Shown piece by piece: positions 6,494 to 26,287 of a stretch of DNA of 26,287 bases. The first letter of the stretch is position 1. The number at the start of each line of letters is the position of its first letter. Source of the DNA: Deltaproteobacteria bacterium (GTDB lineage Bacteria > Myxococcota_A > JAADFL01). The notes below the pieces were generated by a model that was not told where the DNA came from, made no database searches, and saw nothing but the letters and a program-made list of their open reading frames with translations. The DNA lies in contig JAADFL010000074.1 of assembly GCA_013152945.1 (NCBI GenBank), positions 1 through 26,287 of the forward strand, in the 5' to 3' direction. The translations under genes were made by a program, and so were the position numbers.

Positions 6494-6714
6494 GTGATTA
6501 CCGCTCGGCCGTGCCCGATATAAACGCTAATATAAACGAGACATGATTCATGCGCTATCCCCATGAATTAAGGCATTGTATTGACACGGCCCCTGCATCC
6601 AGGCCATGTGCAAGAGATATTATGATGAATTTATCCACCTTACAGGGCCGATGTGTCAAGAAGCTTGTGCATAAGGAACAGGCCCTGAATTTTTATTTTT
6701 CTGAGTGCCACCTT

Positions 6715-8208: not shown

Positions 8209-8507
8209 CTTATCCTCCGTTTCGGGCGCTCTACAGATCAATCAAACGCAAGACCGATAAAAAAATCAGTCCAAAATCAATTTGTATCCTCAAGCATGAA
8301 ACACCACAAACATGAACCAGTCGAGCAAGTGGTGCCTGAACACCTATCTGTGCTTTTTATTTATCGGGTATGACGTTGTGTCAAGAAGATTATAACGGCC
8401 GCCTGCCTCTATATTCCATGTTTCGAGGAGAGAGCCGGCTGCAGAATCCGGGATAACAAGCCGTGGCTTGTAATTACCACGGGAAATCAAGTATCTTTTC
8501 GTAAAGC

Positions 8508-10889: not shown

Positions 10890-11527
10890 TGATTCTTCCC
10901 CTTGGCCTTGTTGAAGAACTCATCCAGGTTTTCGGCTATCTGCCTTGCATGTTTCTCGAATATCTCGGATAGGGCCTTGACTACATAAACCGGGGCCTTG
11001 TTGTGAACAGGTTTCTTGTCGTCGAACTCGTAGCTCCATACTACCTTGTCCGAGCCATAGGCGGTCATGTGGAGAGAAAGCGCCAAGTGGGCGAACCATG
11101 AATCGCCGCTATCCAATTCCTCGACTGCCAACACCTCGCCGGACAGTTCATAGTCCGGGGTACGCTCGGTGAACTTTGTTACGATGCGGGATACTACCTC
11201 GGATTCCGTCAGGTACCTCCTCAAGAGGTCCGAAATCATTTTCTGCGGCCTGACAGCCCACAATTGGTAATGATAGTATTCGAACTCGAACTGGGAATAC
11301 CTGTACACCATCTTTTCTTTGTCATACGCATAGTTGATATCAAGCGGCTTTATCCTCAATACCAATGAATGCGTCGGGAATTTTTTCACCTTCAACGGCC
11401 TAAGGTAGGCCATCATGAAAAAATGTTCCTTTGGCGGGACAGCACATGCAATGATGCTTTTTGTAACCGTTATAAGCAATAATGTCATGATTAACAGCGA
11501 CAGCGTTTGTCGTGCCTTCTTGGTCAC
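10886..11527 (-). CDS. ABC-type transport auxiliary lipoprotein (PqiC-like)
   Basis: This 213-residue protein has a signal segment ending in a Cys at residue 28 (SIIAC), giving a probable lipoprotein. The body fits the PqiC/MlaB-linked auxiliary lipoprotein family: a strand pair LVLRIKPLDI, then YRYSQFEFEYYHYQLWAVRPQKMI, then a helix and the LSGEVLAVEEL strand. Such lipoproteins sit in the periplasmic face of the outer membrane and work with MCE transporters. The start is GTG at 11525-11527, overlapping the stop of the MCE gene by 4 bases (GTGA), and its own stop overlaps the next start by 4 bases. Confidence 0.78.
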   Translation of the reverse strand: MTKKARQTLSLLIMTLLLITVTKSIIACAVPPKEHFFMMAYLRPLKVKKFPTHSLVLRIKPLDINYAYDKEKMVYRYSQFEFEYYHYQLWAVRPQKMISDLLRRYLTESEVVSRIVTKFTERTPDYELSGEVLAVEELDSGDSWFAHLALSLHMTAYGSDKVVWSYEFDDKKPVHNKAPVYVVKALSEIFEKHARQIAENLDEFFNKAKGKNQ

Positions 11528-12558
11528 GGCAACCTCCTTTCTTCACGATGGGAGCCCCCCAGGAGCAGAGCAGGATTCTCTTTTATAAGCCTTGAAAAAT
11601 CCCTGAAGTTCTCTGAAGCCTCGACCAGGTTTTGAACAGCCGCATAGATACCCTCTCTTGTTTGGTTCAGTGTCAACTGTGCCTTTGCCACGAACTTGGA
11701 CGCCTTGTCCAGGAACTTGTTGAGTCTTGCAACGGACATCTTCAGCCCCTTTTCCCCCATCCTGGCCTTTGCCTCGTCCATGGTAATCCTCGCATCCTTC
11801 AGCGTGGCGCCCACGTCCTGTACTACCGTATCCAGGCGTTTTGGATTCAAGAGTTCGACTGCTGCATCAGTGATCCTTTTCATGCCCCCCTTTGCCTCAT
11901 CCACGGTTTTTTTCGCGGCTTGGAGCAATTCCACGAGGGACTGGGCTGCTGTTCCTGCCCCCCTTATCGCATCCCTGATTCCTTTCTCGTTCTTTGACGC
12001 CAACCTATCCATGCGACCGGCCAGGTGGTTTACGCTGTCAAGCAGATTCGCCAATCTCTGGCGGTTCGAGTCGCCTGTAAGTTCGACCAGGTTGTTTATC
12101 ACAATCTCTATTTTTTTCGAAAGGCTCTCGGCGCGCACGGTAAGATCGTCCACCATGCTAGTACCTGACTTTACCTCGGATCCCGGCTTCAAGGTTTCGG
12201 CTTCGTTTGTTCCTCCCCGTATCTCCAGGAATTTGAGACCTGTGATGCCGAACATGTTCATTACCACGCGGGCATCGGCCTTTACAGGTGTCCCGCCGTC
12301 AAGGGAAAACCTGACCATTGTCTTTGTAATGTCCTCGGGGTCTATGAGTATTTTTTCCACCCTGCCGACCCTGACACCATTGTACTTGACCTGGGCGCCT
12401 ACCTCCAGGCCGCTGACCGATTCCGTGTACTTGGCATAATAGAAATCCCTTTTCTCCCAAAGAGCCCTCCCAAGAACGGCGGCCAATCCGGCAATCAGGG
12501 CCAAAACCGAGACCAACACGAAAAAACCCAGTCTGGCCTTTTGAGCTCGGGTGATCAT
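11524..12558 (-). CDS. mlaD: MlaD/MCE family lipid-transport protein
   Basis: This 344-residue protein has an N-terminal transmembrane anchor (about 10-30) and one MCE domain (about 38-115) with the hallmark VSGLEVGAQVKYNGVRVGRV and GLKFLEIRGG. MCE proteins form hexameric rings in the periplasm that pass phospholipids between the membranes. After the MCE domain about 200 residues are helical and Ala/Lys/Asp-rich, longer than the E. coli MlaD tail and like the needle-forming members. The ATG at 12556-12558 follows GAGGAGG and overlaps the stop of the ATPase gene by 4 bases (ATGA). Confidence 0.87.
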   Translation of the reverse strand: MITRAQKARLGFFVLVSVLALIAGLAAVLGRALWEKRDFYYAKYTESVSGLEVGAQVKYNGVRVGRVEKILIDPEDITKTMVRFSLDGGTPVKADARVVMNMFGITGLKFLEIRGGTNEAETLKPGSEVKSGTSMVDDLTVRAESLSKKIEIVINNLVELTGDSNRQRLANLLDSVNHLAGRMDRLASKNEKGIRDAIRGAGTAAQSLVELLQAAKKTVDEAKGGMKRITDAAVELLNPKRLDTVVQDVGATLKDARITMDEAKARMGEKGLKMSVARLNKFLDKASKFVAKAQLTLNQTREGIYAAVQNLVEASENFRDFSRLIKENPALLLGGSHREERRLP

Positions 12559-13352
12559 TTGTTCTCCTCCTCGCAGTGCAAGGCAGCCAGCAATGTGCCC
12601 GTTCCTCCTGCTGCAGCGGGAGCCTTGCGGGCCAGGTAATCTTGTACTGCTTGGTTATTCGACTCCCTCATCTCGGCAAGGCTGCCCTCAAACAATACAT
12701 TGCCTTCATCCAGCATTAATACCCGATCCGCAATTAGTTTAACGCTTGCCATTTCATGTGTTACCGCAACTACGGTCATTGCGAGCGTATCCCGCAGGTC
12801 CCTGATGAGTCTGTCTATTCCTGCGGCAGTCAGTGGGTCCAGGCCTGCACTCGGCTCGTCACAAAACAGTATTTCAGGATCCAATGCAATCGCTCTCGCA
12901 AGAGCAGCCCTTTTCCGCATCCCTCCGGAGAGTTCGGGCGGGAACAGGCCGGCAGCATCAAACAATCCCACCATGGACAATTTCATCCTGACCACGTCGG
13001 ATATTACGGCCCCCGGCAAATCCGTGTGTTGTTCCAATGGCAGGGCGACATTTTCGGCTATGGTCAGTGAATTGAGTAACGCTCCGCCCTGGAACAGTAC
13101 GCCTGTCCTGGTCAACACCTCTTTTTTCTCCCCTTCATCGGCTTGTAAAAGGTCCAGACCCAGGAGTTTGACAGTACCGGCAGCCGGTTCCATGAGTCCG
13201 ACGGCATGTTTCAACAGGGTGCTTTTGCCGCAACCGCTTCCGCCGAGAACAGTCAATATTTCTCCCTTTTCCACGAGCAGGTCCAGGTCCTCGAGTATGA
13301 CCTTGTCGCCGTACTGGGCCTTGAGTCCTCTTATTTCCAATGGCCATGGCAT
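12555..13352 (-). CDS. mlaF: MlaF-type ABC transporter ATP-binding protein
   Basis: This 265-residue ABC ATPase powers the MCE lipid transporter from the cytoplasmic side. The Walker A motif is GGSGCGKST (37-45), the signature LSGGM (141-145), Walker B ILFCDEP (161-167) and the H-loop His199 in VTHE. The signature continues as RKRAALARAIALDPE, typical of the MlaF/MkL branch. The ATG at 13350-13352 follows the permease stop by 16 bases with a weak AGGA site. It is the second gene of the coupled operon. Confidence 0.92.
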   Translation of the reverse strand: MPWPLEIRGLKAQYGDKVILEDLDLLVEKGEILTVLGGSGCGKSTLLKHAVGLMEPAAGTVKLLGLDLLQADEGEKKEVLTRTGVLFQGGALLNSLTIAENVALPLEQHTDLPGAVISDVVRMKLSMVGLFDAAGLFPPELSGGMRKRAALARAIALDPEILFCDEPSAGLDPLTAAGIDRLIRDLRDTLAMTVVAVTHEMASVKLIADRVLMLDEGNVLFEGSLAEMRESNNQAVQDYLARKAPAAAGGTGTLLAALHCEEENK

Positions 13353-13368
13353 TGCTTCATCCTATCTG

Positions 13369-14490
13369 TTAACTGTACCAGAACAACAGGGAAAATATCG
13401 CATCAGCAACGATAACTCCGAAAATTGCCTGTACAACAGCCGAAGTCGTCACCCTGCCGACTCCTTCAGCCCCACCGCTTACACGGAAGCCGTTGAAGGC
13501 TCCTACCACCAGTATAATCCAACCGAATACCACACTCTTGAGCAACCCGGACAAGATGTCCTTTAGTATTAGTGCCCTGGCAGTCTGATGAATAAAAGTC
13601 TGTGGCGAGAGATTGAGCAGTAACATGCCTATCAGCATTCCACCAAGTATTCCGAAGATCGCGGAGATCACGGTCAACAAGGGCTGTGTAAAAGTAATAG
13701 CATATAACTTGGGCACTATGAGAAAACGAACAGGCTCCAACCCAAGTGTCCTGAGGGCATCTATCTCTTCGGTTACCTTCATAGTGGCCACTTCGGCTGC
13801 AACCGCCGAGCCCGAGCGCCCGGCTACCAAGATAGCGGTGAGCAAAGGCGCGAGTTCCCTTGTCATAGCCAACGCCAACATGTCGGCCACGTAGACATTG
13901 GCTCCGAAAGTACGAAGCTGGGTTGCTGAAAGCAAGGCCATTGTAAGTCCGACTATGAAGGATATGAGGGCCACTATTCCCGATGCCCTCGAACCCAGTA
14001 TGACGGCCTGTTCAAGTGCTGCGCCTTTCCTGTAGGGACGCCTTACGAACGGAGATGTCAACGCCCAGGTAAAGGTATCTGCGCAGAGCAGAAGCAACTC
14101 TTTTGCAGCAGCAAGGAATTCGATTAGGTCTTGGCCCTTGCGCTCCAAATACGGCGGTTCGATCCTTGTTACGGCCTCGGACAGTGACTTGAACCGGAAG
14201 ACTTGGAACGCATGCCCGGCTTGCTTCGAAAGCCTGCTGACCTTTAACGCGCAGCCTTTTTCCTTGGCGCTTCGCAATAGATCGGCGAACATGGCAATGC
14301 CTGCCGAGTCGACTCGTTCGACATTTTCGAGATCGATCGAAAGGGATACGCCGCGTAATATTTTGGTACGCAAGGCCTTGTAGACTGCAGGTACGGAAAC
14401 CTTGTCCAGCACTCCCCGGAGAACCAATTCCCTTGGTCTGGATTCATCAGGAAGCCACTCGAAGCTCAACCTTGGTCCTGCTTCGCCCAT
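13369..14490 (-). CDS. mlaE: MlaE-type permease with N-terminal STAS domain
   Basis: This 373-residue protein joins a STAS domain (about 5-100, with the VDSAG motif at about 61-64) to an MlaE permease domain (about 125-370). The permease shows the family hallmark ELAPLLTAILVAGRSGSA followed by VTEEIDALRTLG, and five or six hydrophobic segments. In E. coli the STAS function is a separate protein, MlaB; here it is fused to the permease, a common arrangement in other phyla. ATG at 14488-14490 is taken as start; a TTG three codons upstream (14499) is also possible because GGAGG lies between good distances for the two. It heads the Mla-type run. Confidence 0.9.
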   Translation of the reverse strand: MGEAGPRLSFEWLPDESRPRELVLRGVLDKVSVPAVYKALRTKILRGVSLSIDLENVERVDSAGIAMFADLLRSAKEKGCALKVSRLSKQAGHAFQVFRFKSLSEAVTRIEPPYLERKGQDLIEFLAAAKELLLLCADTFTWALTSPFVRRPYRKGAALEQAVILGSRASGIVALISFIVGLTMALLSATQLRTFGANVYVADMLALAMTRELAPLLTAILVAGRSGSAVAAEVATMKVTEEIDALRTLGLEPVRFLIVPKLYAITFTQPLLTVISAIFGILGGMLIGMLLLNLSPQTFIHQTARALILKDILSGLLKSVVFGWIILVVGAFNGFRVSGGAEGVGRVTTSAVVQAIFGVIVADAIFSLLFWYS

Positions 14491-14566
14491 ACTGTCCAAA
14501 TTCCTCCGGCTCGATCGACTTTAAAAGAGAAGCAAAACGATTTCCCCCATGGGTCTATGTTTCAAG

Positions 14567-14908: not shown

Positions 14909-17908
14909 TCAGGGCTTGTCATAGCAGATAGCGGAATAGCATATCTCTATGGTCGAGCCTGCAGGCGGCACGTGATTGTCATCGAAGGTCACGCTATTGG
15001 AACTCTCGTCATAAGTCCATTCGGTTCCCGATACATTGGATCCGTCGACCTTGACCACAATGGTGCCCGGATCGGCCTGGCGTGAAAGCACGAACTGCTT
15101 GGGCGGCACAAAGACCTCGAAGCCAAGACGTTTTAATTCGTTCGCCCATTTGTCCGTGCAAATAGATATACTTAGCCCGGTCCCTATTCTATTGACCAGC
15201 TCTACATAGCGTCTCCCCGGATCCGCCGAGCCGCCATCTCCCTGACACCCATTTGCAGTGTCGCCGCCACAAATCGCGGAAACCTGAATCAATTCGGTAT
15301 TCCTGTATCCCTTGAGGTGTCTCAGGAAATCCTCATAGTAATCCACTCCGCCCGGGGATTGATCTTCTTCGTCGGATACGTAGATTATGGACAGTTTGGC
15401 CGGTTCACGCAGGAACCCGGCGTTTTCCCCGGACAAATTGGGCTCGGTCAACGCGATCTTGGATGCCTCCATTCCGGCTTCCTTGTTGTCGGAACAACAT
15501 GTCCCGAGGTTGACATTCTTTTTGAACACATCCACTCCGTTGGGCGTGTTCTCGTCAATGTACTTATAACCGCCTTTGTCCACCAGAACGCCGTCATAGA
15601 TGCCCTTGCTCTCGCTGGCATGCTGTATATCAACGGAAATGACACCTATGTGGTAATCCACGTCCAGGGTAACGGCATAGTTTATGAAATCGCTGAAATT
15701 ATCGCCCAGGGCTTTTTGCTCTTCCTGCATGGAGCCTGAATTATCGACCACGAACAACACATCGACTGTGGGCCTCGTCGGTTGAACAAATTGATCACAT
15801 TGGTAGCTGCTCGTCGTACCTTCCCCCCTAAGCGGGATTGTGAACTGGGGATTATCAGCGGCATCGCTTTCGATAATCAGGGCCGCCCTTTCAGTACCAA
15901 CCTTGTCCGGATGAAAGGTCAGGTCGATAAGTCCTACGTCGCCGCCCCGGATAGTCCAGGGTTTGGGCCCGGTGAACGATCCGCTCATCTGCACGATCTC
16001 GAAAGGAGACGTAGCAGGATCAAGGTAGATGTCATTTATTTTCAGGTCTGCGTTTCCGATATTGTATACCTTGACAGTCTCTCTCCTGGAATAACAGCCT
16101 ACTGTTACAAGGCCGAAATCTATCTTGGATGGTAAAACATCGATGTCGCTCTTGGCGCATTTTCCGGTAACCCACACGGTTGTCTCGGTTGCACCAGGAA
16201 TATCGTTAAGGACATGTATAGCGCAACCATGCAACAAGGTGGAAATCTCGGTAGGTGCGTACTCCACGGTCACATCCGCATAACTGTTGGGTTCCAATTC
16301 ATCGGGAACATTGGGGGCATCCGTAATGGTAAAGTATTTTTGTGACAGCCAATACACCCCACCGGCATCCTTTTTTATGGAAGTAAGCTTGAATTTTTGC
16401 GTTCCGCAGTTGGATATCCTGAAGCTCAAGGTCGGCTTATTCCCCAGCTTTACGGTCCCGAAATTCAACTTCTCAGGATTGATGCACATTTGGGGGCCGC
16501 AAGGAGGACCGTTTGCATCTCCCCGAAGAGATACGAGCACAGTGCTTTCATCCCGGTCATTGGACTTGATTTCCAGTGTTCCGAAAACCGACTGGTCCTG
16601 CTGGGAGTTTTGTTCTGTGGGTGCAAAAGTGATTTCGACCTTTGTAGAAGAATTAGGCCCAACCGTGGGATCAGGCGCTTTTGTTATGGAATAGGCGCCG
16701 TTTCCGTCAGAAGTCAATGTAACGGAATTCAACACCAGGTCGCCGAGGCCGGTATTGCTTATATCCACTGTTTCAACCTGGGTGCTCCCGTCGGTCCTGC
16801 ACACCTTGCCGAAATCAAGTTCCAACGGACTTACTGTTATCTCCGCCTGGCTCACGCTGCCGTTAAGCTGCACCTTATGATCGGTTTCCTTGCAACTATC
16901 GCTCGTAAGCACAAGCTCGCCCGTGTCCGAGGAAATATCGCTGGGTGAATATGTCACTTCGACCTGCACGGAATCCCCGGGAGCCATGTCCAGCGGAAGG
17001 TTGGCGCCGACCACTGCCGGAGGAACCTTGCCGAAGTCGGCACTCGAATTCTGCGAGAGTTCAACATTGGTTAGACTAAGGTGCCTCGTATCCCCGCATG
17101 CATTTATGCACTTTACGGTCTTCTTGGCACTGGACCCCTGGCTTACCCCGGCGAAATTCAAGGATTCCGGGGTGCATTCGAGCCTTGGCGGACTTTTATC
17201 ATAGCTCTTTAACAGAACCTTGAGTTCCGGGTCGTCCTGGTCGTTGGAAGCAACAACCAGGTTGGCCTGGTCATCATAACAATCATTTGGGTTGGCCGGA
17301 GGCTTGGGAGCATATGTGATTTTTACCGGAACGAACTTCTGGGGTTGCAACACCAGGGGTGAGCCCTGCGAGGGGGGCTGTGCCCCGAGTACCTCGAAGG
17401 AAAATTCATCTTGATCTGCATCGAAAGGATCGATTGTCAAAGAACTGATCTTCAAATCTTCGGTTCCCAGGTTGTAGATCTGAACAGTCTCGTCCCTGAC
17501 CTGGCCCGGGAAAACCGAGCCGAATTCCACGCTGTCGGGCTGTGCAGTTATCTGTGGACCCTCCTTGGCGGTATCTGTATCCGTGTCCGTGTCTGTATCC
17601 GTGTCTGTATCCGTGTCAATATCAGTGTCAATATCAGTGTCGGTGTCGGTGTCGGAATCCGTGTCGACATCCATATCTGTATCGATATCTGCATCTCCGG
17701 ACGGGGAGCAAAAACCGTGATTGCACTTTGTGTCGCCAGGACAGTCCTGATCTTTTGTACATGGCTGAGCCGTGCACTTGCCGTCTTGACAAATCTGCCA
17801 AAACTCACAGTCGTCGGCAGTAACGCACTGTTTCTCGTTACTTGTTCCACATGCACCCGTCAGCCATGAGACAAGTATCAATATACCCAAAAAAACCGTC
17901 CTTTTCAT
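14909..17908 (-). CDS. HYDIN-repeat and VWA lipoprotein
   Basis: This 999-residue protein starts with a lipoprotein signal (LTGAC, Cys20), then a Cys-rich segment (about 26-70). An Asp-Thr/Asp-Ile repeat spans about 74-113. Five beta-sandwich repeats of the ASPM-SPD-2-HYDIN type (choice-of-anchor D) start near residues 117, 239, 352, 469 and 583. A von Willebrand A domain starts near 710 with the metal-site motif DNSGSMQEEQ. The C-terminal stretch (from about 930) is a further beta domain. This layout is common in Myxococcota surface lipoproteins, which suggests cell-surface display and metal-dependent adhesion. The ATG follows GGGAGG, and a good promoter lies at 17939-17967. Ligand unknown. 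Confidence 0.85.
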   Translation of the reverse strand: MKRTVFLGILILVSWLTGACGTSNEKQCVTADDCEFWQICQDGKCTAQPCTKDQDCPGDTKCNHGFCSPSGDADIDTDMDVDTDSDTDTDTDIDTDIDTDTDTDTDTDTDTDTAKEGPQITAQPDSVEFGSVFPGQVRDETVQIYNLGTEDLKISSLTIDPFDADQDEFSFEVLGAQPPSQGSPLVLQPQKFVPVKITYAPKPPANPNDCYDDQANLVVASNDQDDPELKVLLKSYDKSPPRLECTPESLNFAGVSQGSSAKKTVKCINACGDTRHLSLTNVELSQNSSADFGKVPPAVVGANLPLDMAPGDSVQVEVTYSPSDISSDTGELVLTSDSCKETDHKVQLNGSVSQAEITVSPLELDFGKVCRTDGSTQVETVDISNTGLGDLVLNSVTLTSDGNGAYSITKAPDPTVGPNSSTKVEITFAPTEQNSQQDQSVFGTLEIKSNDRDESTVLVSLRGDANGPPCGPQMCINPEKLNFGTVKLGNKPTLSFRISNCGTQKFKLTSIKKDAGGVYWLSQKYFTITDAPNVPDELEPNSYADVTVEYAPTEISTLLHGCAIHVLNDIPGATETTVWVTGKCAKSDIDVLPSKIDFGLVTVGCYSRRETVKVYNIGNADLKINDIYLDPATSPFEIVQMSGSFTGPKPWTIRGGDVGLIDLTFHPDKVGTERAALIIESDAADNPQFTIPLRGEGTTSSYQCDQFVQPTRPTVDVLFVVDNSGSMQEEQKALGDNFSDFINYAVTLDVDYHIGVISVDIQHASESKGIYDGVLVDKGGYKYIDENTPNGVDVFKKNVNLGTCCSDNKEAGMEASKIALTEPNLSGENAGFLREPAKLSIIYVSDEEDQSPGGVDYYEDFLRHLKGYRNTELIQVSAICGGDTANGCQGDGGSADPGRRYVELVNRIGTGLSISICTDKWANELKRLGFEVFVPPKQFVLSRQADPGTIVVKVDGSNVSGTEWTYDESSNSVTFDDNHVPPAGSTIEICYSAICYDKP
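17571..17695 (-). repeat. In-frame 6-base repeat encoding Asp-Thr run
   Basis: A hexanucleotide-period repeat inside the HYDIN/VWA lipoprotein gene reads as alternating Asp with Thr, Ile, Met, Val or Ser on the minus strand. Copies vary at synonymous and first-position bases. Being a multiple of three, slippage would change linker length without frameshift. The acidic linker could bind calcium. Confidence 0.8.
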
Positions 17909-18264: not shown

Positions 18265-19176
18265 ATGGCTAAGAAGTTCTCTTTGTTTTGGGTGTTGGTT
18301 TTTTTAACTTACTTGGCTTTGCCGCATTCCGGGGCAATGGCCCTTGGATTTGACGAGGACCAAGCCGGTCCTGATCAAAGCTCAAATAATGAAGGTTCCT
18401 GGAATGAATCCAGCGACCAGGGAGATGACAAATCCGAACAGGAGGGAGAAGAAACAAAAGAGCCGCCTCCACCGCCAAAGAAAGAACAAAAAACTGTGAA
18501 CAAAGCCAAAAAGCAACAAAAGGCCGAGGAACCGCAGGAAGATGAACTTCTCTCCCTGGAGGCGCAGAAAGAAATAGAGTCCAGGATAAAAGTCATAGAG
18601 AAGAAGTTTTTTACAAAAGCCATGCGCCTTGAGATATCCCCGTATTTCGGTGTTCTTCCACAGGATTCCCTTATGGTGGGGATCAGTCCCGGAGCCAGGA
18701 TCGACTTTTTCATAACTGAGTCCTTCGGTCTGGAAGTCATGGGAGGCGGCGTGTTCAATTTCAAAAAAGACATGCTCAAGTATGCAGATAAAAAGAATTG
18801 GTATTTCGACGAGAGCAGACCCAAGTGGATGGCGGGAGCCAATATCCTTTGGTCGCCTTTCTATGGCAAATTCAGTTTTCTTACCGAGTGGCTCGTCAAC
18901 TTCGATTTCTTTTTATCCGTTGGTTTCGTTGCAGTGGGAAGCGAATCAGTCAATCGTTATTCTTCCCGTGACACTGAAAACGGCACTCACCCGGGTGGAA
19001 GCATCGGTCTTGGGTGGAAACTATTCGTAACCAAGTGGTTTGCTCCGAGAATAGACGTGAGTTACTTGTTCTACATGGAGAAATTCGCCGATCCCAAGGG
19101 GCAGAAGCACGAAGACCCGACACAGTTCAGGGACAATGTGCTTGTCTCCCTGGGTTTCAGCTTTTATCCATACTGA
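18265..19176 (+). CDS. Outer-membrane beta-barrel (GltA/GltB/NfsA-like)
   Basis: From the ATG at 18265 this encodes 303 residues with a signal peptide (hydrophobic core, then AMA near residues 24-26). Residues about 30-90 are an acidic, Pro- and Lys-rich periplasmic linker. The C-terminal 200 residues are beta-strands typical of the small myxobacterial outer-membrane barrel family (TIGR04565-like): IEKKFFTKAMRLEISPYFG at the start, and the protein ends in VSLGFSFYPY with a terminal aromatic, as in barrels. Two codons upstream (18247) is a weaker TTG start. It is first in a run matching GltA/B-GltC-GltD-GltE-GltF-GltG. In M. xanthus such barrels are outer-membrane parts of the gliding (Glt) and sporulation (Nfs) machines. 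Confidence 0.65.
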   Translation: MAKKFSLFWVLVFLTYLALPHSGAMALGFDEDQAGPDQSSNNEGSWNESSDQGDDKSEQEGEETKEPPPPPKKEQKTVNKAKKQQKAEEPQEDELLSLEAQKEIESRIKVIEKKFFTKAMRLEISPYFGVLPQDSLMVGISPGARIDFFITESFGLEVMGGGVFNFKKDMLKYADKKNWYFDESRPKWMAGANILWSPFYGKFSFLTEWLVNFDFFLSVGFVAVGSESVNRYSSRDTENGTHPGGSIGLGWKLFVTKWFAPRIDVSYLFYMEKFADPKGQKHEDPTQFRDNVLVSLGFSFYPY

Positions 19177-19234
19177 ACATAATCCAGGCTCGCTCTGCCT
19201 GAAGGGTCCTCGTCCGGCAGGAGCGGGTCCGGTC

Positions 19235-19242
19235 GAGGAGGA
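19235..19242 (+). promoter_or_regulatory. Shine-Dalgarno site fixing lipoprotein start
   Basis: GAGGAGGA lies 7 bases before the ATG at 19250-19252. It selects this start, which gives a clean lipoprotein signal, over an in-frame GTG at 19136 that would overlap the upstream gene. Confidence 0.75.
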
Positions 19243-19249
19243 TTTCCTG

Positions 19250-20809
19250 ATGCATGTAAGATGTACAATCCTGGTGGTGGTGGGCATTTCCATACTTGCC
19301 GCGAGTTGCGCCCACAAGGGATTCGTGATTCCCGACGACCCTATAGACAGGGGTGTTATCGGGGCTGTGCCGCATTCAGTAGACTTGGCGATTACCAAGT
19401 TCAACAACAAGGATTATACCGGAGCGAGTCTTGCATGGCAGAATGTTTTATCCGGTCCGGATGCGGCCCGGTTCGGGTCCATGGCTGAATACTATCTTGC
19501 AGAAAGCCTCTTCAGGATGGAACTCATTCAGGCCTCACAGTATTTTTTCCAAAGTGTTCTGCTCAAAGGGCCGTCTGGGGCTTACTTTGCAAAAAGCCTG
19601 GACAGGCTGTTTAAAATAGCAAAGTTTTCCAAGGATGAATCCTCGATACCCAAGGCCCTGCAATCAACTGCATTTGCCGACCTTCCGCCGAATTTCAAGG
19701 ATGAGGTGCTCTACCTGATGGGTAAATACTATTTTCGCCAAGGCCAATTGGACAGGGCAAAGGAAAATTTTTCTTCCGTGGTCTCTGAAAGCGATTTTTT
19801 CCCGGACGCGAATTACTATCTTGGCATAATCGCGGTAAAGGAAAAACAATACAAAGAGGCGGTTCTGACTTTCAAGAAGGTTGCAGCACTCGATCCCGGC
19901 CTGTACTCGGATCCTGACTCGGTAAAGAAAGTACAGAACCTGGCGAACCTCGCAACCGGTCAAATCTATTATGGACTTCGGTATTTCCCCCTTGCAATAC
20001 ATTATTACAGCAAGGTGAACAGGCGCCACCATGACTGGCCGGAAGCTCTTTTCGAGATGGCATGGGCCACTTTCATGAAAGGGAGATTCAATGATTCCCT
20101 GGGGATAATTCATGCCCTTCATTCACCGTACTTCAAAGACAGGTTTCAACCTGAAACCGAACTGCTCGCGGCCATAAACTATTTGAACCTTTGTAAGCAC
20201 GACCCGGCCAAGAAGATAATAGACCACTTCAAGGAGACCTATGTCCCCATGGAAGAAAGGTTGAACAGGTTCATCACGGATCAGAAGAACAGGCCGCCCG
20301 AACTGTTGTATACCATCCTGGTCGAAATTCTGCGGGGAAAGGATCCTGACAGGTTGCCTGCACCCATAGTCACATTCGTATTCGAAAATGCAACGATCAG
20401 GACTTTGCACCACATGATAGGCGAGGTTGAAAGAGAGATACGAATCATTAAAAGGTTGCCTGAAAACTGGAAGAGGAGTTCCATGGGACAGGCTGTTTTC
20501 CAGAAGCTGATGGCTGACAGGGTGGAATTCATGAAATCAGCCGGAATATTGGCTCAAAAGGAGATTGCCGAGGCAGCCAAGCAGTTGACCGACTTGAGGG
20601 CGAATGCAATAACCATTGAATTCGAGACAGCGAATGCGGAGAAAGAATGGCTCGAGGCCAGGCGGCGCGGCGTAATTGGTGCGGGGGGACGCAAAGTTTC
20701 ATTCTCCGCTGCCGTGCCGGACAATTACGAGTTTTGGATCTTCTCCGGAGAGTACTGGTGGGATGAGCTAGGCTACTACAAGTACAATCTGGTTGCGGAG
20801 TGCCCATGA
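19250..20809 (+). CDS. gltC: TPR lipoprotein (GltC/NfsC-like)
   Basis: This 519-residue protein has a lipoprotein signal with lipobox AASC (Cys20). The middle (about 50-330) is a row of tetratricopeptide-type helices; pairs such as YYLAESLFRME, YLMGKYYFRQGQLDRAKENF and YYLGIIAVKEKQYKEAVLTF are visible. The C-terminal 180 residues are helical and charged, ending in a Trp/Tyr-rich patch (EYWWDELGYYKYN). In M. xanthus, GltC is the periplasmic TPR protein that binds the outer-membrane barrels GltA and GltB. The position between a barrel gene and a GltD-like gene supports this call. The last 4 bases (ATGA) overlap the next start, giving tight coupling. The assignment rests on order and architecture, not on alignment. 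Confidence 0.62.
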   Translation: MHVRCTILVVVGISILAASCAHKGFVIPDDPIDRGVIGAVPHSVDLAITKFNNKDYTGASLAWQNVLSGPDAARFGSMAEYYLAESLFRMELIQASQYFFQSVLLKGPSGAYFAKSLDRLFKIAKFSKDESSIPKALQSTAFADLPPNFKDEVLYLMGKYYFRQGQLDRAKENFSSVVSESDFFPDANYYLGIIAVKEKQYKEAVLTFKKVAALDPGLYSDPDSVKKVQNLANLATGQIYYGLRYFPLAIHYYSKVNRRHHDWPEALFEMAWATFMKGRFNDSLGIIHALHSPYFKDRFQPETELLAAINYLNLCKHDPAKKIIDHFKETYVPMEERLNRFITDQKNRPPELLYTILVEILRGKDPDRLPAPIVTFVFENATIRTLHHMIGEVEREIRIIKRLPENWKRSSMGQAVFQKLMADRVEFMKSAGILAQKEIAEAAKQLTDLRANAITIEFETANAEKEWLEARRRGVIGAGGRKVSFSAAVPDNYEFWIFSGEYWWDELGYYKYNLVAECP

Positions 20810-23800
20810 TGATAGTAAACAAATTCGGCAGGCCCTTTCACTATCTTCTTCTTGCGGTAATATCTTCAAGTTTCCTGATTGTCCCGGTTACGACTGGAGC
20901 CAAGGGAAAGTCCAAGGCAAAGCCCAGGCCAAAGCTCAAGAGCACGGAAAAGGACAAGGCCAGGCACCGGATGTTGCGTTACAGCCAGGAAGATATCGAT
21001 CTGGACATTAAGATAGAAAGAAAACGCAACGAAACGATTCGGCTCCTGGTAAAGCTCCTCAAGGATTTTCCTAAAAACCATCCGAAACGAGCTGACATGT
21101 TACGCAGATTGGCCGAACTATACTGGGAAAAAGCCAAGTTCATGTACCTGCAAAAAATGAGGATCTACAACAAAAGATATTCCGCTTGGCTTGACTCCGG
21201 TTCAAAGGGGCCGGAACCCAAGCTTGATCTGCGAAGCATACAGGTATTCAACAAAAAGGCCATCAATATCTGCGAAGCGATACTAAGACAGTACCCGGAT
21301 TATAAAAAACTGGACGAAGCCCTCTTTTTCCTTGGTTACAACTACGGAGAGATAGGCAAAAAGTCCAAGGCTCTGTCCTACTACAAACGAATTACGAAGC
21401 AGTTTCCGAACAGTTCGCACGTTGCAGAGGCATGGTTACAAATAGGCGAATATTATTTCGATGCCAATAATGTCTATGACGCTCTTCAAGCTTACAAGAA
21501 AGCTGTTACCTTCACCAGTGCAAAAACGTTTGGTTACGCAATGTACAAACTGGCATGGTGTTATTACAACCTGGGTGAGTACAAGAAGGCCATAGATTTA
21601 TTCAAAAAGGTGGTTTCCTACAGCATAGAACAGGAAAAGGAAAAGAAAAGCAAGATCCAGTTACGCGAGGAAGCACTCAAGGATCTTGTGAGGACGTATG
21701 CGGACGATGAAAACGTCGAGGATGCCGAGGCATACTTCAAATCGGTAGGCGGCGGAAAATACCTCCGAATGATGTACAAATTGCTTGCCAAGGCATATTG
21801 GGAGCAGGGCAAGGATGAACAATGTATCGATATCTACAAGCGTCTCATAGCGCTCGATCCGTTACACCCGGAAACACCCGAATATCACTTGGCAATGATA
21901 AGAGCTTACAAGCGGATGGGTAACAAGAAAAGGGTTGTTAAGGAGATCGTGAGGTTGCTGGACATTTATGCCGTCAACGGGCAATGGGCCAAGGCCAACA
22001 AGGATCAGAAAGAGTTGCTCGAGGAAACCCGTGATACCCTGGAAGCCAACCTGCGACAAATCGTTATCAGTTATCACAAGGAATACCAGAAGAGAAAGAG
22101 CAGACGAACGAGGAAATACACCAGGGAATTGTACGAACTGTATTTAAAATATTTTCCGGATCGCCCGTACGCAAAAGATTTGCGTTACTTCTATGCCGAC
22201 TTGTTGTTCAGTGGAGGGGAATGGGACTTATCCTATGACCAATACATGAAGGTTGTGGATGAGCTCAAGAACTCCAAGAAAAAGCGTGATCGCCAGAGAC
22301 TGGAACTTGCGGCTTACAACTCCATCATTGCGATGGAGAAGCAATTGACCGCTGCCGAAAAAAGAAAGATGACCTTGCGTGAAGATGCCCGCAAGGTGCG
22401 GGCCCGCGTGGCCGGATCGGCCGACAAGAGGAAAGACCTGGAGAAAGAGGGACGAAAAGAAAAAGATATCAAGCCAAAGCCGATTCCGAAGAAATTCAAG
22501 CGGTTGATTGCTGCGTGCGAGAACTATATCAAGCTCGTCCCAGAATCCCAGTACAAGATAGAAATTCGGTACAAGGCTGCAAAAATATATTACGATTACA
22601 ATCACTTCGATAAGGCTGCGAAAACATTTTATGGAATCGTCAAGAATCATCCGACTCATAAACTTGCAGAGCTGGCCGCCAACCTCATCCTGGATTCTCT
22701 CAACATGGGCAAAAATTGGAGTGAGCTGAACAAGCGGGCCAGGGAATTCAGAAAAAACCGAAAGTTGGTCAGGAACAGGACTTTTGCAAAGCTGTTGGAC
22801 AAACTGATTATGCAATCCCAGTACATGATGGCCCTGGCCTTGGAAAAGCAGAAAAAGTATAGCCTGGCTGCTGAATCATTTATCACTTTTGTGAAAGATT
22901 GGCCGAAATCGTCATATTGCGGGAAGGCACTGTACAGCGCCGCCGCCTTCCTGGCCAATGCCGGCAAAATAGAGGCCTCGATAAAGTTGAGGGAAAGACT
23001 CAACAAGGAATACCCGAAGTTCGAATATATACCGGACAATATCTTCCATATCGCCGAATTGTACCAGCGCTTGGTATATTGGAGCAAAGCGGCTCAAACA
23101 TATGAACGATTGGCAAATGAATACCCGAAGCACGAGAAAGCGGCCGATGCCTTGTTCAATGCCGGTGTACTTTGGCAGAACCTGGGACGCAGAAAGAGGT
23201 CGATAAAGGATTTCAAGGATTATATCGATAGATTCCCAAAGCGTCCCGATGCACCTGGATTGTTGCTTTCCATAGGTGACATGTTGATGGAGGAAAACAA
23301 TCCTGATGAGGCATTCAAGACCTATGAGGAATGGCTCAAAAAATTCGGTAAAGCTGATGATAAGAAAACAAAGGAGCAGGCCCTTGCGGTTCGTTTCAAG
23401 ATAGCCAAGGCCATGTGGGAAAAGGGCGGTAAGGACAAGGAAAAGGCTGAAAAAACTTTTGTGCAGATCGTGGAGAAGGCTACGGATCCCAAGATTCCGG
23501 CCGATGAGAAAAGCACCGTCTTGTTGTCATCTGCAGCAGAGGCATCCTTCCTTATGGCCGAGAAACCTCTCCAGGAATATCTCAAGATGAAGTTGAAGCT
23601 TCCCATGAAGCGTCTGGAAGCCGGGCTGAAGAAAAAGGCCAAGGCCTTGTTGGAAATGAAAAAACGGTATGAAACAATTGTTAGTTACAGACAAGCCGAA
23701 TGGGCGATAGCTGCTCTGTACAAACTCGGAGAAGCAAACCAGAATTTCGCGAGGACCCTTTATGATGCCCCGATTCCTCCGGAACTTACTCCTGAGCAGG

Positions 23801-24135
23801 CCGATATATATACACAGGGCCTCCAAAACAAGGCAATGCCGATTGAAGAGAGGGCGGCGGAGGCTTACAAGAAAGCCGTGAACAAATCTTTTGAACTGGG
23901 CATGTATTCCAAGTGGACAAAGAAGGCACTTGAAAAATTATCTGAACTGAAACCCAATACGTATCCGTTGGCAAGGGAGATCAAGCCTTCAAAGGCTGCC
24001 GTGGCCTTAAGTTTCTTCGCGCCTTCCGGGCCGGCGGCTCTTTCAGGAAAGTCGAGACAGAGGGCTGAAAAAAAGATAATGCGACAAGTACAAAGGGCGG
24101 CACCAACACCGGCTGCACCTCAATCAGGCAAGTAA
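20806..24135 (+). CDS. gltD: Large periplasmic TPR protein (GltD/AgmU-like)
   Basis: From the ATG at 20806 this encodes 1109 residues; AgmU/GltD of M. xanthus is about 1200. A signal peptide (hydrophobic core about 12-30) is followed by a Lys-rich stretch. Many TPR-type helix pairs follow, e.g. EALFFLGYNYGEIGKKSKALSYY-like units and AWLQIGEYYFDANNVYDAL. A very basic, coiled segment (KKRDRQR to KFKRL, bases about 22280-22500) interrupts the TPR rows, and a basic Pro/Ala tail ends the protein. The start overlaps the upstream stop by 4 bases (ATGA) and has GGAG five bases upstream. It is followed by the GltE-like gene after 12 bases. In Myxococcus this protein is a scaffold of the motility complex. 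Confidence 0.72.
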   Translation: MMIVNKFGRPFHYLLLAVISSSFLIVPVTTGAKGKSKAKPRPKLKSTEKDKARHRMLRYSQEDIDLDIKIERKRNETIRLLVKLLKDFPKNHPKRADMLRRLAELYWEKAKFMYLQKMRIYNKRYSAWLDSGSKGPEPKLDLRSIQVFNKKAINICEAILRQYPDYKKLDEALFFLGYNYGEIGKKSKALSYYKRITKQFPNSSHVAEAWLQIGEYYFDANNVYDALQAYKKAVTFTSAKTFGYAMYKLAWCYYNLGEYKKAIDLFKKVVSYSIEQEKEKKSKIQLREEALKDLVRTYADDENVEDAEAYFKSVGGGKYLRMMYKLLAKAYWEQGKDEQCIDIYKRLIALDPLHPETPEYHLAMIRAYKRMGNKKRVVKEIVRLLDIYAVNGQWAKANKDQKELLEETRDTLEANLRQIVISYHKEYQKRKSRRTRKYTRELYELYLKYFPDRPYAKDLRYFYADLLFSGGEWDLSYDQYMKVVDELKNSKKKRDRQRLELAAYNSIIAMEKQLTAAEKRKMTLREDARKVRARVAGSADKRKDLEKEGRKEKDIKPKPIPKKFKRLIAACENYIKLVPESQYKIEIRYKAAKIYYDYNHFDKAAKTFYGIVKNHPTHKLAELAANLILDSLNMGKNWSELNKRAREFRKNRKLVRNRTFAKLLDKLIMQSQYMMALALEKQKKYSLAAESFITFVKDWPKSSYCGKALYSAAAFLANAGKIEASIKLRERLNKEYPKFEYIPDNIFHIAELYQRLVYWSKAAQTYERLANEYPKHEKAADALFNAGVLWQNLGRRKRSIKDFKDYIDRFPKRPDAPGLLLSIGDMLMEENNPDEAFKTYEEWLKKFGKADDKKTKEQALAVRFKIAKAMWEKGGKDKEKAEKTFVQIVEKATDPKIPADEKSTVLLSSAAEASFLMAEKPLQEYLKMKLKLPMKRLEAGLKKKAKALLEMKKRYETIVSYRQAEWAIAALYKLGEANQNFARTLYDAPIPPELTPEQADIYTQGLQNKAMPIEERAAEAYKKAVNKSFELGMYSKWTKKALEKLSELKPNTYPLAREIKPSKAAVALSFFAPSGPAALSGKSRQRAEKKIMRQVQRAAPTPAAPQSGK

Positions 24136-24147
24136 CAGGAGGATCTT

Positions 24148-25281
24148 ATGAAAATACCAAGGATTGGTTTCATACTTGCAGCGCTCCTTTGGTTGCCTGC
24201 CGGTTGCGGAGGCGCAAAGCCCAAGGAGGAAAAGCAGGTAAAGAAAATAGCGCAGGTTCAGCCCCAAGTGACCGAGACGGCCGCTGATATTTTTGATTCA
24301 GGACTTCAATTCTTCAAGGTGGAAATGAAAAAAGGAAAGCCTGATTTCAGCAACGCTGAAACAAAATTCAGGAAGGCCCTGGAATTGGACCCGGATCTGA
24401 TTGAAGCACGTTACAATTTGGCCTTGATATCCTTGCTAAGTGGCAAATGTGCTTCAGCGGAAAAACAGTTCAGGATAATTCTGACCAGGCGTCCCGATCA
24501 CAGGGCATCAAAACTCAATCTGGCAAAGGCCCTTATGTGCCAAGGCAAGGATGAATCCGCAAAAAGGATTTATTCTGAAATGGTTGCCAAAGATCCCTCC
24601 GACACCATGGTCCTTAATAATCTTGTAACAATAGCACTTAAAGACAAGAATATTCCCGAGGCGATGCGCGGTATCAGAGCCATACTGGCCAAGGACCACA
24701 AGAATGCCGGTGCTTATGCAGCCCTTTCAGCCGTTTACTACCTGAAGGGCAACTACTCCATGGCTAAATTGGTTGCAATAAATGCTCTAAAGTCGGACAA
24801 AAACAATACGGACTTGCAAAACAATCTTGCTTTGGCATTGCTCAAACTAGGGGAAGTCAACCCTGCGCTTCGGCATTTCGAGAAGGCGATTCAAATTGAT
24901 GACAGGAATGTTGACGCCCATCTAAATTTAGGCACCATCTTGCTGGAATATAGGAACTACAAATCTGCGCTCTCAAACTTGGAAAAGGCCGTGGCTCTTA
25001 AACCATCCGATCAGGATGCAAAACTGCTATACGCGATTGCGCTTCGGGGAAACCGTGATTTCAACAAGGCCAAGAAGGTGTATGAAGGTATTCTCAAAAA
25101 AGATCCCAGGAACTACTATGCTCTATTCGATCTCGGCGTGATGTATTCGGACTTCCTGAATAACCCCAAAAAGGCTCTTGATTATTTCAACCGGTATATT
25201 TCGGCAAAAGGCGGTAATGTTGCCAAAAACGATCCGGTGAACGACTACAAGACAAAACTTGAAATGATGCTGGAGAAGTAA
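24148..25281 (+). CDS. gltE: TPR lipoprotein (GltE/AglT-like)
   Basis: This 377-residue protein has a lipobox PAGC (Cys20) and a Lys-rich linker, then a continuous row of TPR motifs from about residue 47 to the end, with clear units such as AETKFRKALELDPDLIEARYNLALI and ALRHFEKAIQIDDRNVDAHLNLGTI. It starts 12 bases after the GltD-like stop, with AGGAGG before the ATG. In M. xanthus AglT/GltE is the TPR lipoprotein encoded next to AgmU/GltD, and it helps connect inner and outer parts of the complex. Gene order, size class and architecture all match. Confidence 0.75.
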   Translation: MKIPRIGFILAALLWLPAGCGGAKPKEEKQVKKIAQVQPQVTETAADIFDSGLQFFKVEMKKGKPDFSNAETKFRKALELDPDLIEARYNLALISLLSGKCASAEKQFRIILTRRPDHRASKLNLAKALMCQGKDESAKRIYSEMVAKDPSDTMVLNNLVTIALKDKNIPEAMRGIRAILAKDHKNAGAYAALSAVYYLKGNYSMAKLVAINALKSDKNNTDLQNNLALALLKLGEVNPALRHFEKAIQIDDRNVDAHLNLGTILLEYRNYKSALSNLEKAVALKPSDQDAKLLYAIALRGNRDFNKAKKVYEGILKKDPRNYYALFDLGVMYSDFLNNPKKALDYFNRYISAKGGNVAKNDPVNDYKTKLEMMLEK

Positions 25282-25295
25282 TGAGTTGCCCAAAG

Positions 25296-25309
25296 CCGGA
25301 AAGCTCCGG
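25296..25309 (+). terminator. Small hairpin after gltE-like gene
   Basis: CCGGA-AAGC-TCCGG forms a 5-bp stem with a 4-base loop, followed by TATTTGT. The poor T-run makes it at best a weak terminator or attenuator between the gltE-like and gltF-like genes. It precedes an internal promoter. Confidence 0.3.
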
Positions 25310-25326
25310 TATTTGTCGCGAATTGG

Positions 25327-25355
25327 TTGACAACATGGCTAACTATGGATATATA
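25327..25355 (+). promoter_or_regulatory. Internal sigma-70 promoter before gltF-like gene
   Basis: A perfect TTGACA (25327-25332) is followed after exactly 17 bases by TATATA (25350-25355). Transcription would start near 25362, about 47 bases before the gltF-like ATG. Such a promoter inside the cluster would allow the gltF-gltG part to be expressed apart from the upstream barrel and TPR genes. Confidence 0.6.
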
Positions 25356-25408
25356 GAATTAAACTTGCGATCCAGGTCTCTACCCTGATAGGCCGGGAGG
25401 AGTTTGAG

Positions 25409-25684
25409 ATGACAAAAAAGATTATTAGCTTGATGGCCCTTATTTTTGCTCTTGGACTTTTTTTCCCTATGACCGTATCAGCACAGGATGATGAAGATAA
25501 TGTCACTGTTATTTATAAGAAGAAAACCATAATAGATTTCGAAGATGTATTGCTCCAGGGCGAGTTGCGGAAACCACAAGGGGCCTTTCTTCAAGATAGA
25601 AGAAGGACCAAGTTCGATTCGTTGATCACCCTTCGTGATTCTTTCGAGCGTGAGATGTTTCGAACGGTTGATGAACTCAAATGA
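25409..25684 (+). CDS. gltF: Small exported motility protein (GltF/CglF-like)
   Basis: This 91-residue protein has a signal peptide (cleavage near VSA, residue 24), an acidic patch, then a short conserved-looking core: VIYKKKTIIDFEDVLLQGELRKPQG followed by a basic stretch and FDSLITLRDSF. This core pattern matches what I recall of the small GltF protein (also called CglF) that lies between gltE and gltG in M. xanthus. The ATG follows GGGAGGAG. It is separated from the GltE-like gene by 127 bases that hold a hairpin and a strong promoter, and is 47 bases before the GltG-like gene. Biochemical function is not known. Confidence 0.62.
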   Translation: MTKKIISLMALIFALGLFFPMTVSAQDDEDNVTVIYKKKTIIDFEDVLLQGELRKPQGAFLQDRRRTKFDSLITLRDSFEREMFRTVDELK

Positions 25685-25731
25685 CTAACAACTGATCTCC
25701 CTTCACGGGGAGGAGTAGGCGGAGTCTGATA

Positions 25732-26287
25732 ATGGCCGAGGGTATTCAGGATCTTTCTATTGCCGTCAGAATCCATAGAGGTGGAGAGCTGGTGGATGAA
25801 AAACTTTCTGCCAAGGCCCTTTTGACCATTGGTAGTAGTTCATCGGCAGACATTGTGCTTGAAGGAGAAGGTATTGATTCCATTCATGCCACCATTGAGC
25901 TGAATGATGAACAAGACATCATTTTGTCCGACAAGGGATCCGCTGCCGGAGTATCGTTGAATGGTAAGCGGATTAAAAGGAAAGCTTTTGTTGAAGAAGG
26001 TGACCGAATAGAGATCGGCGGCTATGAATTATCGGTAGCGCTGGTGGATGAATCAAAGATAGACCAAGCAGCAGTTGAATCCCCTGTGGAACAAAAGCAT
26101 GATGAAGTAGATGGGTTTGAAGGAATTCATGAAGATGCCGCTGAATATGCTGAAGAGGCATATGAAGATGCCGGGGACCAAGGCCTGGTGGTCACCCTCA
26201 TTCCCGAGACTACTCCCGGGGAGCGCAAGGGGGAGAGAGTTCTCGAAGTCAGGGGTATCCTGTGGGGTGATACACTTTACAAGGTGG
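25732..26287 (+). CDS. gltG: FHA protein (GltG/PglI-like), 3' end missing
   Basis: The frame is open from ATG 25732 to the window edge (185 codons shown). An FHA fold spans about residues 10-105. The residues that normally contact phosphothreonine are changed: Ser35 where Arg is usual (IGSSSSADI), Asp49 where Ser precedes the conserved His52 (GIDSIH), and Ala72 where Asn is usual (GSAAGVSLNG). The domain is followed by a very acidic linker (about 105-160) and by LEVRGILWGDTLYKV, the start of a motif also found in GltG/AgmX proteins. In M. xanthus GltG is the inner-membrane FHA/TonB-type protein of the machine. GGAG seven bases upstream supports the start. The C-terminal part lies outside this window. 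Confidence 0.75.
   Translation, partial: MAEGIQDLSIAVRIHRGGELVDEKLSAKALLTIGSSSSADIVLEGEGIDSIHATIELNDEQDIILSDKGSAAGVSLNGKRIKRKAFVEEGDRIEIGGYELSVALVDESKIDQAAVESPVEQKHDEVDGFEGIHEDAAEYAEEAYEDAGDQGLVVTLIPETTPGERKGERVLEVRGILWGDTLYKV

What the first reader, a model, noticed from the sequence alone, without database searches (positions are those of the whole stretch)
18265..26287. Unified Glt/Nfs-type surface-machine locus in one plus-strand run
Outer-membrane barrel, TPR lipoprotein, long TPR protein, TPR lipoprotein, small exported protein and FHA protein appear in the order GltA/B-C-D-E-F-G. In M. xanthus the gliding genes are split into two clusters, while the sporulation paralogs (NfsA-H) form a single operon. 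The arrangement here is the single-operon form, with tight coupling between the second and third genes, and in an apparently moderate-GC relative. It could be an ancestral-type machine, a spore-coat or polysaccharide system, or a motility system. The missing downstream part should decide.
Basis: partly seen in the sequence, partly recalled or inferred. Interest (0 to 1): 0.78.

Follow-up and report, generated by a model that had tools for sequence, protein, structure and literature searches.

The report
Third Glt/Nfs-type surface machine locus
This is a genuine relative of the Myxococcus gliding and spore-coat machines, but it is not the gliding one: it is a motor-less third version, and in related bacteria its genes sit next to a proton-motor and polysaccharide-export cluster, so it probably moves or anchors a surface sugar polymer.

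Summary
Window 18265-26287 carries A/B-C-D-E-F-G of the Glt/Nfs family on one strand, with an ATGA overlap between C and D. The window is a whole contig that stops inside gltG. Contig overlaps lead most plausibly to contig C48, whose first gene is a GltH (CglE) homologue followed by unrelated genes. The set is then A/B-C-D-E-F-G-H, without I, J, K or motor, which matches Nfs in content.

It is not the Glt orthologue. The same genome has a fuller Glt operon on contig C25 that passes curated GltC and CglF cut-offs and carries GltJ. Trees of C+D+E put the window with one other Myxococcota genome and UBP6-like bacteria. Grouping with Glt is rejected; a sister relation to Nfs is not excluded.

In UBP6-like genomes this module lies directly before an AglRQS-type motor cluster ending in an OM barrel, Wza and Wzc. 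The window's genome has the same motor-export cluster on C78, with its only Wza.

Best reading: a motor-less effector module sharing that motor and acting on a secreted polysaccharide. New variant of a known kind; the function is inferred.

The parts
18265..19176 (+). GltA/GltB-type outer-membrane beta-barrel protein (single A/B gene)
   Evidence: TIGR04565 OMP_myx_plus 1.5e-26, 93 bits, cut-off 60; 28% identical to the A/B of locus B on C25
19250..20809 (+). GltC-type TPR lipoprotein
   Evidence: NF033756 gliding_GltC 5.5e-88, 296 bits, below the 450 cut-off; start and lipobox LAASC read by eye; keeps the conserved C-terminal E-W-DE-G-Y motif
20806..24135 (+). GltD-type long TPR protein; ATGA overlap with gltC
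   Evidence: Pfam TPR_6 5.7e-32; 33% identical over nearly its full length to the D of locus B; ATGA at 20806
24148..25281 (+). GltE-type TPR lipoprotein
   Evidence: NF033758 gliding_GltE 4.5e-45, 154 bits, below the 225 cut-off
25409..25684 (+). GltF/CglF-type small exported protein
   Evidence: NF033764 gliding_CglF 1.1e-16, 61 bits, below the 90 cut-off
25732..26287 (+). GltG-type FHA protein, 5' part only (cut by the contig end)
   Evidence: PF00498 FHA 3.7e-14; NF033760 GltG N-terminus 8.6e-16; continuation inferred on contig C48, whose next gene is GltH/CglE
26197..26287 (+). 91-base stretch identical to the end of contig C189, start of a collapsed repeat inside gltG

Best explanation
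The locus encodes a motor-less effector module of the Agl-Glt/Nfs class of envelope machines, in a lineage separate from Glt. GltG spans the inner membrane, with FHA in the cytosol and a TonB-like tail in the periplasm, and takes force from a proton-driven AglR/Q/S-type motor. GltD and the lipoproteins GltC and GltE pass the force to the outer membrane, where the A/B barrel, F and H engage a surface cargo. The motor is most likely the one on contig C78, in a cluster that also exports a polysaccharide through an OM barrel, Wza and Wzc. The likeliest cargo is that polysaccharide, moved or anchored at the surface much as Nfs handles spore-coat glycan. Shown here: gene content, homology, tree placement, and linkage of this type of module to the motor and export cluster in relatives. 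Inferred: the force path, motor sharing in this organism, and the cargo.
For: Family profiles for A/B, C, E, F and G in order. Downstream contig C48 starts with GltH/CglE above the curated cut-off and then leaves the family; no motor. The Glt orthologue is elsewhere, on C25, with GltC and CglF above cut-off and GltJ, and the trees agree. Grouping the window clade with the Glt clade is rejected, p-AU 1.3e-4. In UBP6-like G063 and G064 the window-type module is followed on one contig by C'-D'-E'-F'-R-S-S-G'-coiled coil-barrel-Wza-Wzc. The window's genome has that same motor and export cluster on C78, with barrel, Wza and Wzc homologues at 3.5e-27, 1.2e-41 and 2.1e-118 and its only PF02563 protein. 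The C78 motor groups with the UBP6, G007 and Bdellovibrio motors (99/97). Reduced UBP6 genome UBA1196 has one D, of window type, and keeps R-S-S beside it. Nfs is known to carry spore-coat glycan using AglRQS (PMC3858216).
Against: The module is not linked to the motor cluster in the window's own assembly. UBA1196 and G070 keep the module but show only a longer, different Wza, so dependence on this exporter is not obligatory. Another Agl-type motor exists on C212. The C74-C48 join is inferred from k-mer overlap and synteny. No experiment on any window-type locus is known to me.
Confidence: 0.5

Rival explanations
1. It is a second gliding (A-motility) machine, or an alternative focal-adhesion effector, driven by the same motor under MglA control.
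For: The genome encodes an MglA 80% identical to that of M. xanthus and a full Glt operon on C25; four UBP6-like genomes also carry MglA.
Against: The Glt role is already filled by locus B, and the window clade is excluded from the Glt clade. Seven rumen UBP6-like genomes keep the module with no MglA found. No GltI, J or K.
Confidence: 0.2
2. It is a functional Nfs equivalent: a spore-coat machine of this lineage, with the Nfs set A-H in one operon and the motor supplied in trans.
For: Same gene content as NfsA-H apart from one A/B gene, no I, J, K and no motor (PMC3858216). A sister relation of the window clade to Nfs is not rejected, p-AU 0.089.
Against: The best trees place the window clade with another Myxococcota clade (92 to 97) rather than with Nfs; the window alone inside the Nfs clade is rejected, p-AU 0.0012. 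Sporulation of UBP6-like bacteria is not established here.
Confidence: 0.2
3. The module works without an Agl-type motor, as a passive envelope scaffold, or is a decaying relic.
For: No motor gene is in the locus or immediately downstream.
Against: All reading frames are intact with tight gene spacing; the GltG type that contacts AglR in M. xanthus (PMC3169522) is kept; relatives carry the motor next to the module.
Confidence: 0.1

Closest known systems
Nfs (NfsA-H) sporulation machine of Myxococcus xanthus
   Same: One-operon layout, same A-H gene types, no I, J, K, and no linked motor (PMC3858216)
   Different: One A/B gene instead of two; falls outside the Nfs clade in the best trees, though a sister relation is not excluded; no evidence of a sporulation role
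Glt (GltA-K) gliding machine of Myxococcus xanthus
   Same: Homologous A/B, C, D, E, F, G and H
   Different: No GltI, J or K in the locus; not the orthologue (p-AU 1.3e-4), which is on C25 in this genome; single run instead of two clusters
Window-type locus of UBP6-like bacteria (e.g. L060, L061, L066) and Myxococcota genome G007
   Same: Same clade (99), one A/B gene, similar sizes of C, E and F, and H after G in the UBP6-like ones
   Different: UBP6-like GltG has no FHA-like N-terminus by length and reading; there the module is joined to the motor and export cluster
Core complex of Luciano et al. 2011 (gltC, D, E, G with aglR, Q, S; includes the G4 and G5 clusters of M. xanthus)
   Same: Shares the C, D, E, G core
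   Different: Core complexes carry the motor; the window has A/B, F and most likely H but no motor. The equivalents here are the loci on C78 and C212

Membership tests
Glt/Nfs family of envelope machines | Homologues of GltC, D, E and G in one set | tested here: met
   Profiles and alignments
Glt/Nfs family of envelope machines | OM barrel A/B, small protein F and OM protein H | tested here: met
   A/B and F in the window; H on C48 above the curated cut-off, joined by inferred contig overlap
Glt gliding machine | Orthology to M. xanthus Glt in trees | tested here: not met
   Locus B takes that place (99); window clade with Glt rejected, p-AU 1.3e-4
Glt gliding machine | Scores above curated GltC, GltE and CglF cut-offs | tested here: not met
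   GltC 296 of 450, GltE 154 of 225, CglF 61 of 90 bits; locus B passes for GltC and CglF
Glt gliding machine | GltI, GltJ and GltK present with the locus | tested here: not met
   Not in the window or on C48; GltJ found on C25
Nfs sporulation machine | A-H genes in one operon without I, J, K | tested here: inconclusive
   Content matches but with one A/B gene, and the G-H join is inferred
Nfs sporulation machine | Orthology to NfsC, D, E | tested here: inconclusive
   Best trees place it elsewhere; window alone with Nfs rejected, p 0.0012; window clade as sister to Nfs not rejected, p 0.089
Nfs sporulation machine | Required for spore-coat assembly | not testable with these tools
   Needs genetics
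Group B core complex with AglRQS motor | Motor genes in the same cluster | tested here: not met
   None in the window or on C48; Agl-type motors are on C78 and C212

The most novel reading that the evidence does not exclude
The window-type module is a third specialised Glt/Nfs machine, shared by deep Myxococcota and UBP6-like bacteria. It forms one unit with a G4-type motor and Wza/Wzc export cluster and acts as a motor-driven handler of a secreted polysaccharide, outside gliding and sporulation. That cluster's motor would be the original shared AglRQS motor that the Glt and Nfs modules plug into.
Probability: 0.35. Interest if true: 0.75.

Novelty: new variant of a known kind. Interest (0 to 1): 0.52.

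Why it matters
The 2011 survey saw gltA, B, F and H only in Myxococcales and Bdellovibrionales, with H thought to be a recent gain, and left the G4 cluster of M. xanthus without a function (PMC3169522). Here an A/B-C-D-E-F-G-H module occurs in UBP6-like bacteria and in a deep Myxococcota lineage, and in UBP6-like genomes it lies beside a G4-type motor and a polysaccharide exporter. That makes two open questions testable: which motor and cargo the early machine had, and what the G4 cluster does. In M. xanthus the published tags put wzaB/wzpB (MXAN_1915/1916, PMC9603273) a few genes from the G4 gltD homologue MXAN_1922 (PMC3169522).

Tried and rejected
The single run as a rarity was rejected: it is common among the 80 named GltC loci. 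The window as the Glt orthologue was rejected by cut-offs, trees and the existence of the C25 operon. A first MglA search with the Arf family found only a 964-residue frame in the window's genome; a direct search with M. xanthus MglA then found an 80% identical protein. C142 as the downstream contig was considered: its first codirectional gene is a 728-aa protein with no Glt relation, whereas C48 starts with GltH, which also follows gltG in UBP6-like, Myxococcota, Bdellovibrio and nfs loci. The motor on C136 was considered as partner; it groups with motors found about 5 kb upstream of other Myxococcota loci (95/83) but no Q/S partner was detected in the 10.9 kb read around it. The promoter scan gave 17 sites against 10 expected and the terminator scan fewer than expected; neither was used. 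A longest-ORF gene caller failed on high-GC genomes, so the survey was redone on all ORFs. No structure prediction was run.

Full report
What is there. The window is the entire contig G000:C74 of a 4.84 Mb, 218-contig genome. From 18265 to its end it carries six plus-strand genes: an OM beta-barrel protein (TIGR04565, above cut-off), a GltC-like lipoprotein (NF033756, 5.5e-88), a long TPR protein, a GltE-like lipoprotein (NF033758, 4.5e-45), a CglF/GltF-like small protein (NF033764, 1.1e-16) and the FHA-bearing start of a GltG (NF033760, 8.6e-16). C and D share an ATGA, and E, F and G follow at gaps of 12, 127 and 47 bases. The hits to GltC, GltE, CglF and GltG are below the curated equivalog cut-offs, which marks divergent homologues.

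The missing downstream part. The last 91 bases of the window equal the last 91 bases of contig C189. The C-terminal 29 residues of a GltG sit at the start of C48 and, on the other strand, at the end of C142, and those two ends again share exactly 91 bases. This looks like a de Bruijn assembly with k = 91 and a collapsed repeat covering the rest of gltG. Two genes would then share that stretch: the window's gltG and a second copy near rpsT on C189 whose N-terminus lacks FHA. C48 begins with a 221-residue protein that passes the CglE/GltH cut-off (NF033755, 93.8 bits against 70). GltH-like genes follow gltG in UBP6-like loci, several Myxococcota loci, Bdellovibrio and M. xanthus nfs. The genes after it on C48 are a convergent cysteine desulfurase (named by eye) and unrelated genes. 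The most likely locus is therefore A/B-C-D-E-F-G-H, with no I, J, K or motor. The C74-C48 join is inferred from overlap and synteny, not sequenced.

Other machines in the same genome. Three more loci exist. Locus B on C25 runs A/B-C-D-E-F-G-TPR-(3919-aa TPR protein)-J. Its GltC (480 bits against 450) and CglF (100.5 against 90) pass the curated cut-offs, and GltJ is recognised across two ORFs. Calling the giant TPR protein GltI rests on position and TPR content only. Locus C on C78 runs X-C-D-E-F-R-S-S-G, followed within about 11 kb by a coiled-coil-like protein, an OM barrel candidate, Wza and Wzc. Locus D on C212 has R-S-S, an FHA-GltG, an A/B-like OM protein and C, D, E.

Placement. A scan of named genomes with a GltC alignment gave 80 loci. 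All-ORF profile searches show A/B-(A/B)-C-D-E-F-G in one run in many Myxococcota MAGs, in a Bdellovibrio and in UBP6-like bacteria, while Myxococcus and Corallococcus show A/B-A/B-C alone. M. xanthus nfs, glt D-E and two further paralogue loci were fetched through a D-profile search of that genome. Trees of concatenated C+D+E put the window with G007 and the UBP6-like loci (SH-aLRT 99), that group with an 18-locus Myxococcota clade (92 with LG+G4, 97 with the C20 mixture on a reduced set), locus B with M. xanthus Glt and Bdellovibrio (99), loci C and D each with a further M. xanthus paralogue (100), and Nfs apart. A GltC-only tree agrees for the window clade (96) and the Glt clade (97). Grouping the window clade with the Glt clade is rejected (p-AU 1.3e-4). 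Holding it as sister to Nfs is not rejected (0.089), nor is grouping it with the whole Glt-side assemblage (0.093). The safe statement is: not a Glt orthologue; a distinct lineage whose deeper relations are not settled.

Motor and cargo. In UBP6-like genomes G063 and G064 the window-type module is followed on the same contig, after murI (named by eye) in G064, by the locus C type: X-C'-D'-E'-F'-R-S-S-G'-coiled coil-barrel-Wza-Wzc; G066 shows the same up to D' in the stretch read. Wza matches PF02563 (9e-23), and the next protein has Wzz, GNVR and AAA_31 domains. UBA1196 has a single D, of window type, with R-S-S next to it. In the window's genome the only PF02563 protein is the C78 one; in G007 a Wza lies about 6 kb from the related motor on the same contig. 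The C78 motor falls in a supported clade with the UBP6, G007 and Bdellovibrio motors and one M. xanthus motor (99/97); that the M. xanthus one is AglR itself is my inference. In M. xanthus AM003 the locus-C-type paralogue sits after an mglB-mglA pair. From the published tags it is most likely the G4 cluster (MXAN_1922, PMC3169522), and WzaB/WzpB are MXAN_1915/1916 (PMC9603273); I did not see that adjacency in the AM003 contigs, which break after E. Together with AglRQS-driven transport of spore-coat glycan by Nfs (PMC3858216), this makes a polysaccharide-linked surface machine using the C78 motor the best explanation. UBA1196 and G070 show that the link to this Wza is not obligatory.

Gliding. 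The organism has an MglA 80% identical to that of M. xanthus and a Glt orthologue, so it may well glide, but then by locus B. Seven UBP6-like genomes, mostly from rumen by their titles, keep the window-type module with no MglA found, while four other UBP6-like genomes have MglA. MAG incompleteness could explain some absences.

Verdict. The reading of the genes and of the family is correct. The locus is a new variant of a known kind, not Glt and not securely Nfs; its motor and cargo are inferences from gene neighbourhoods.

Noticed in passing
window 26197-26287; L003 19910-20000 (end of C189); L050 1-91; L051 6071-6161: The periplasmic part of gltG appears to exist twice in identical form: once in this operon behind an FHA domain, once near rpsT behind a short N-terminus without FHA. 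Both junctions are in frame and both copies end in E-stop with different codons. A recent duplication, gene conversion or strain mixture could cause it.
   Followed up: partly
L052 7830-20000 and L053 1-14615 (C25): The organism's Glt orthologue is itself a single operon A/B-C-D-E-F-G-TPR-giant TPR-J, with GltJ in two ORFs.
   Followed up: yes
L054 7364-20000 and L055 6449-11302 (C78); L205, L206: A Glt-like core with its own R-S-S motor is followed by coiled coil, OM barrel, Wza and Wzc, and this arrangement is conserved between this Myxococcota genome and UBP6-like bacteria.
   Followed up: yes
L151 6517-15411 (M. xanthus AM003): mglB-mglA is followed by a conserved coiled-coil-like protein X and a C-D-E set, probably the G4 cluster; X is also conserved in the C78 locus and in UBP6-like loci.
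   Followed up: partly
window 3535-8241, minus strand: Three consecutive B12-binding radical SAM proteins of similar size, probably a tandem family.
   Followed up: no
window 14909-17908, minus strand: A 999-aa putative lipoprotein with HYDIN/ASH-type Ig-like repeats, divergent from the Glt-like operon.
   Followed up: no
window 11524-14499, minus strand: Mla/MCE-type lipid transport genes: an MlaD-domain protein with, by eye, an ABC ATPase and a STAS-containing permease-like protein beside it.
   Followed up: no
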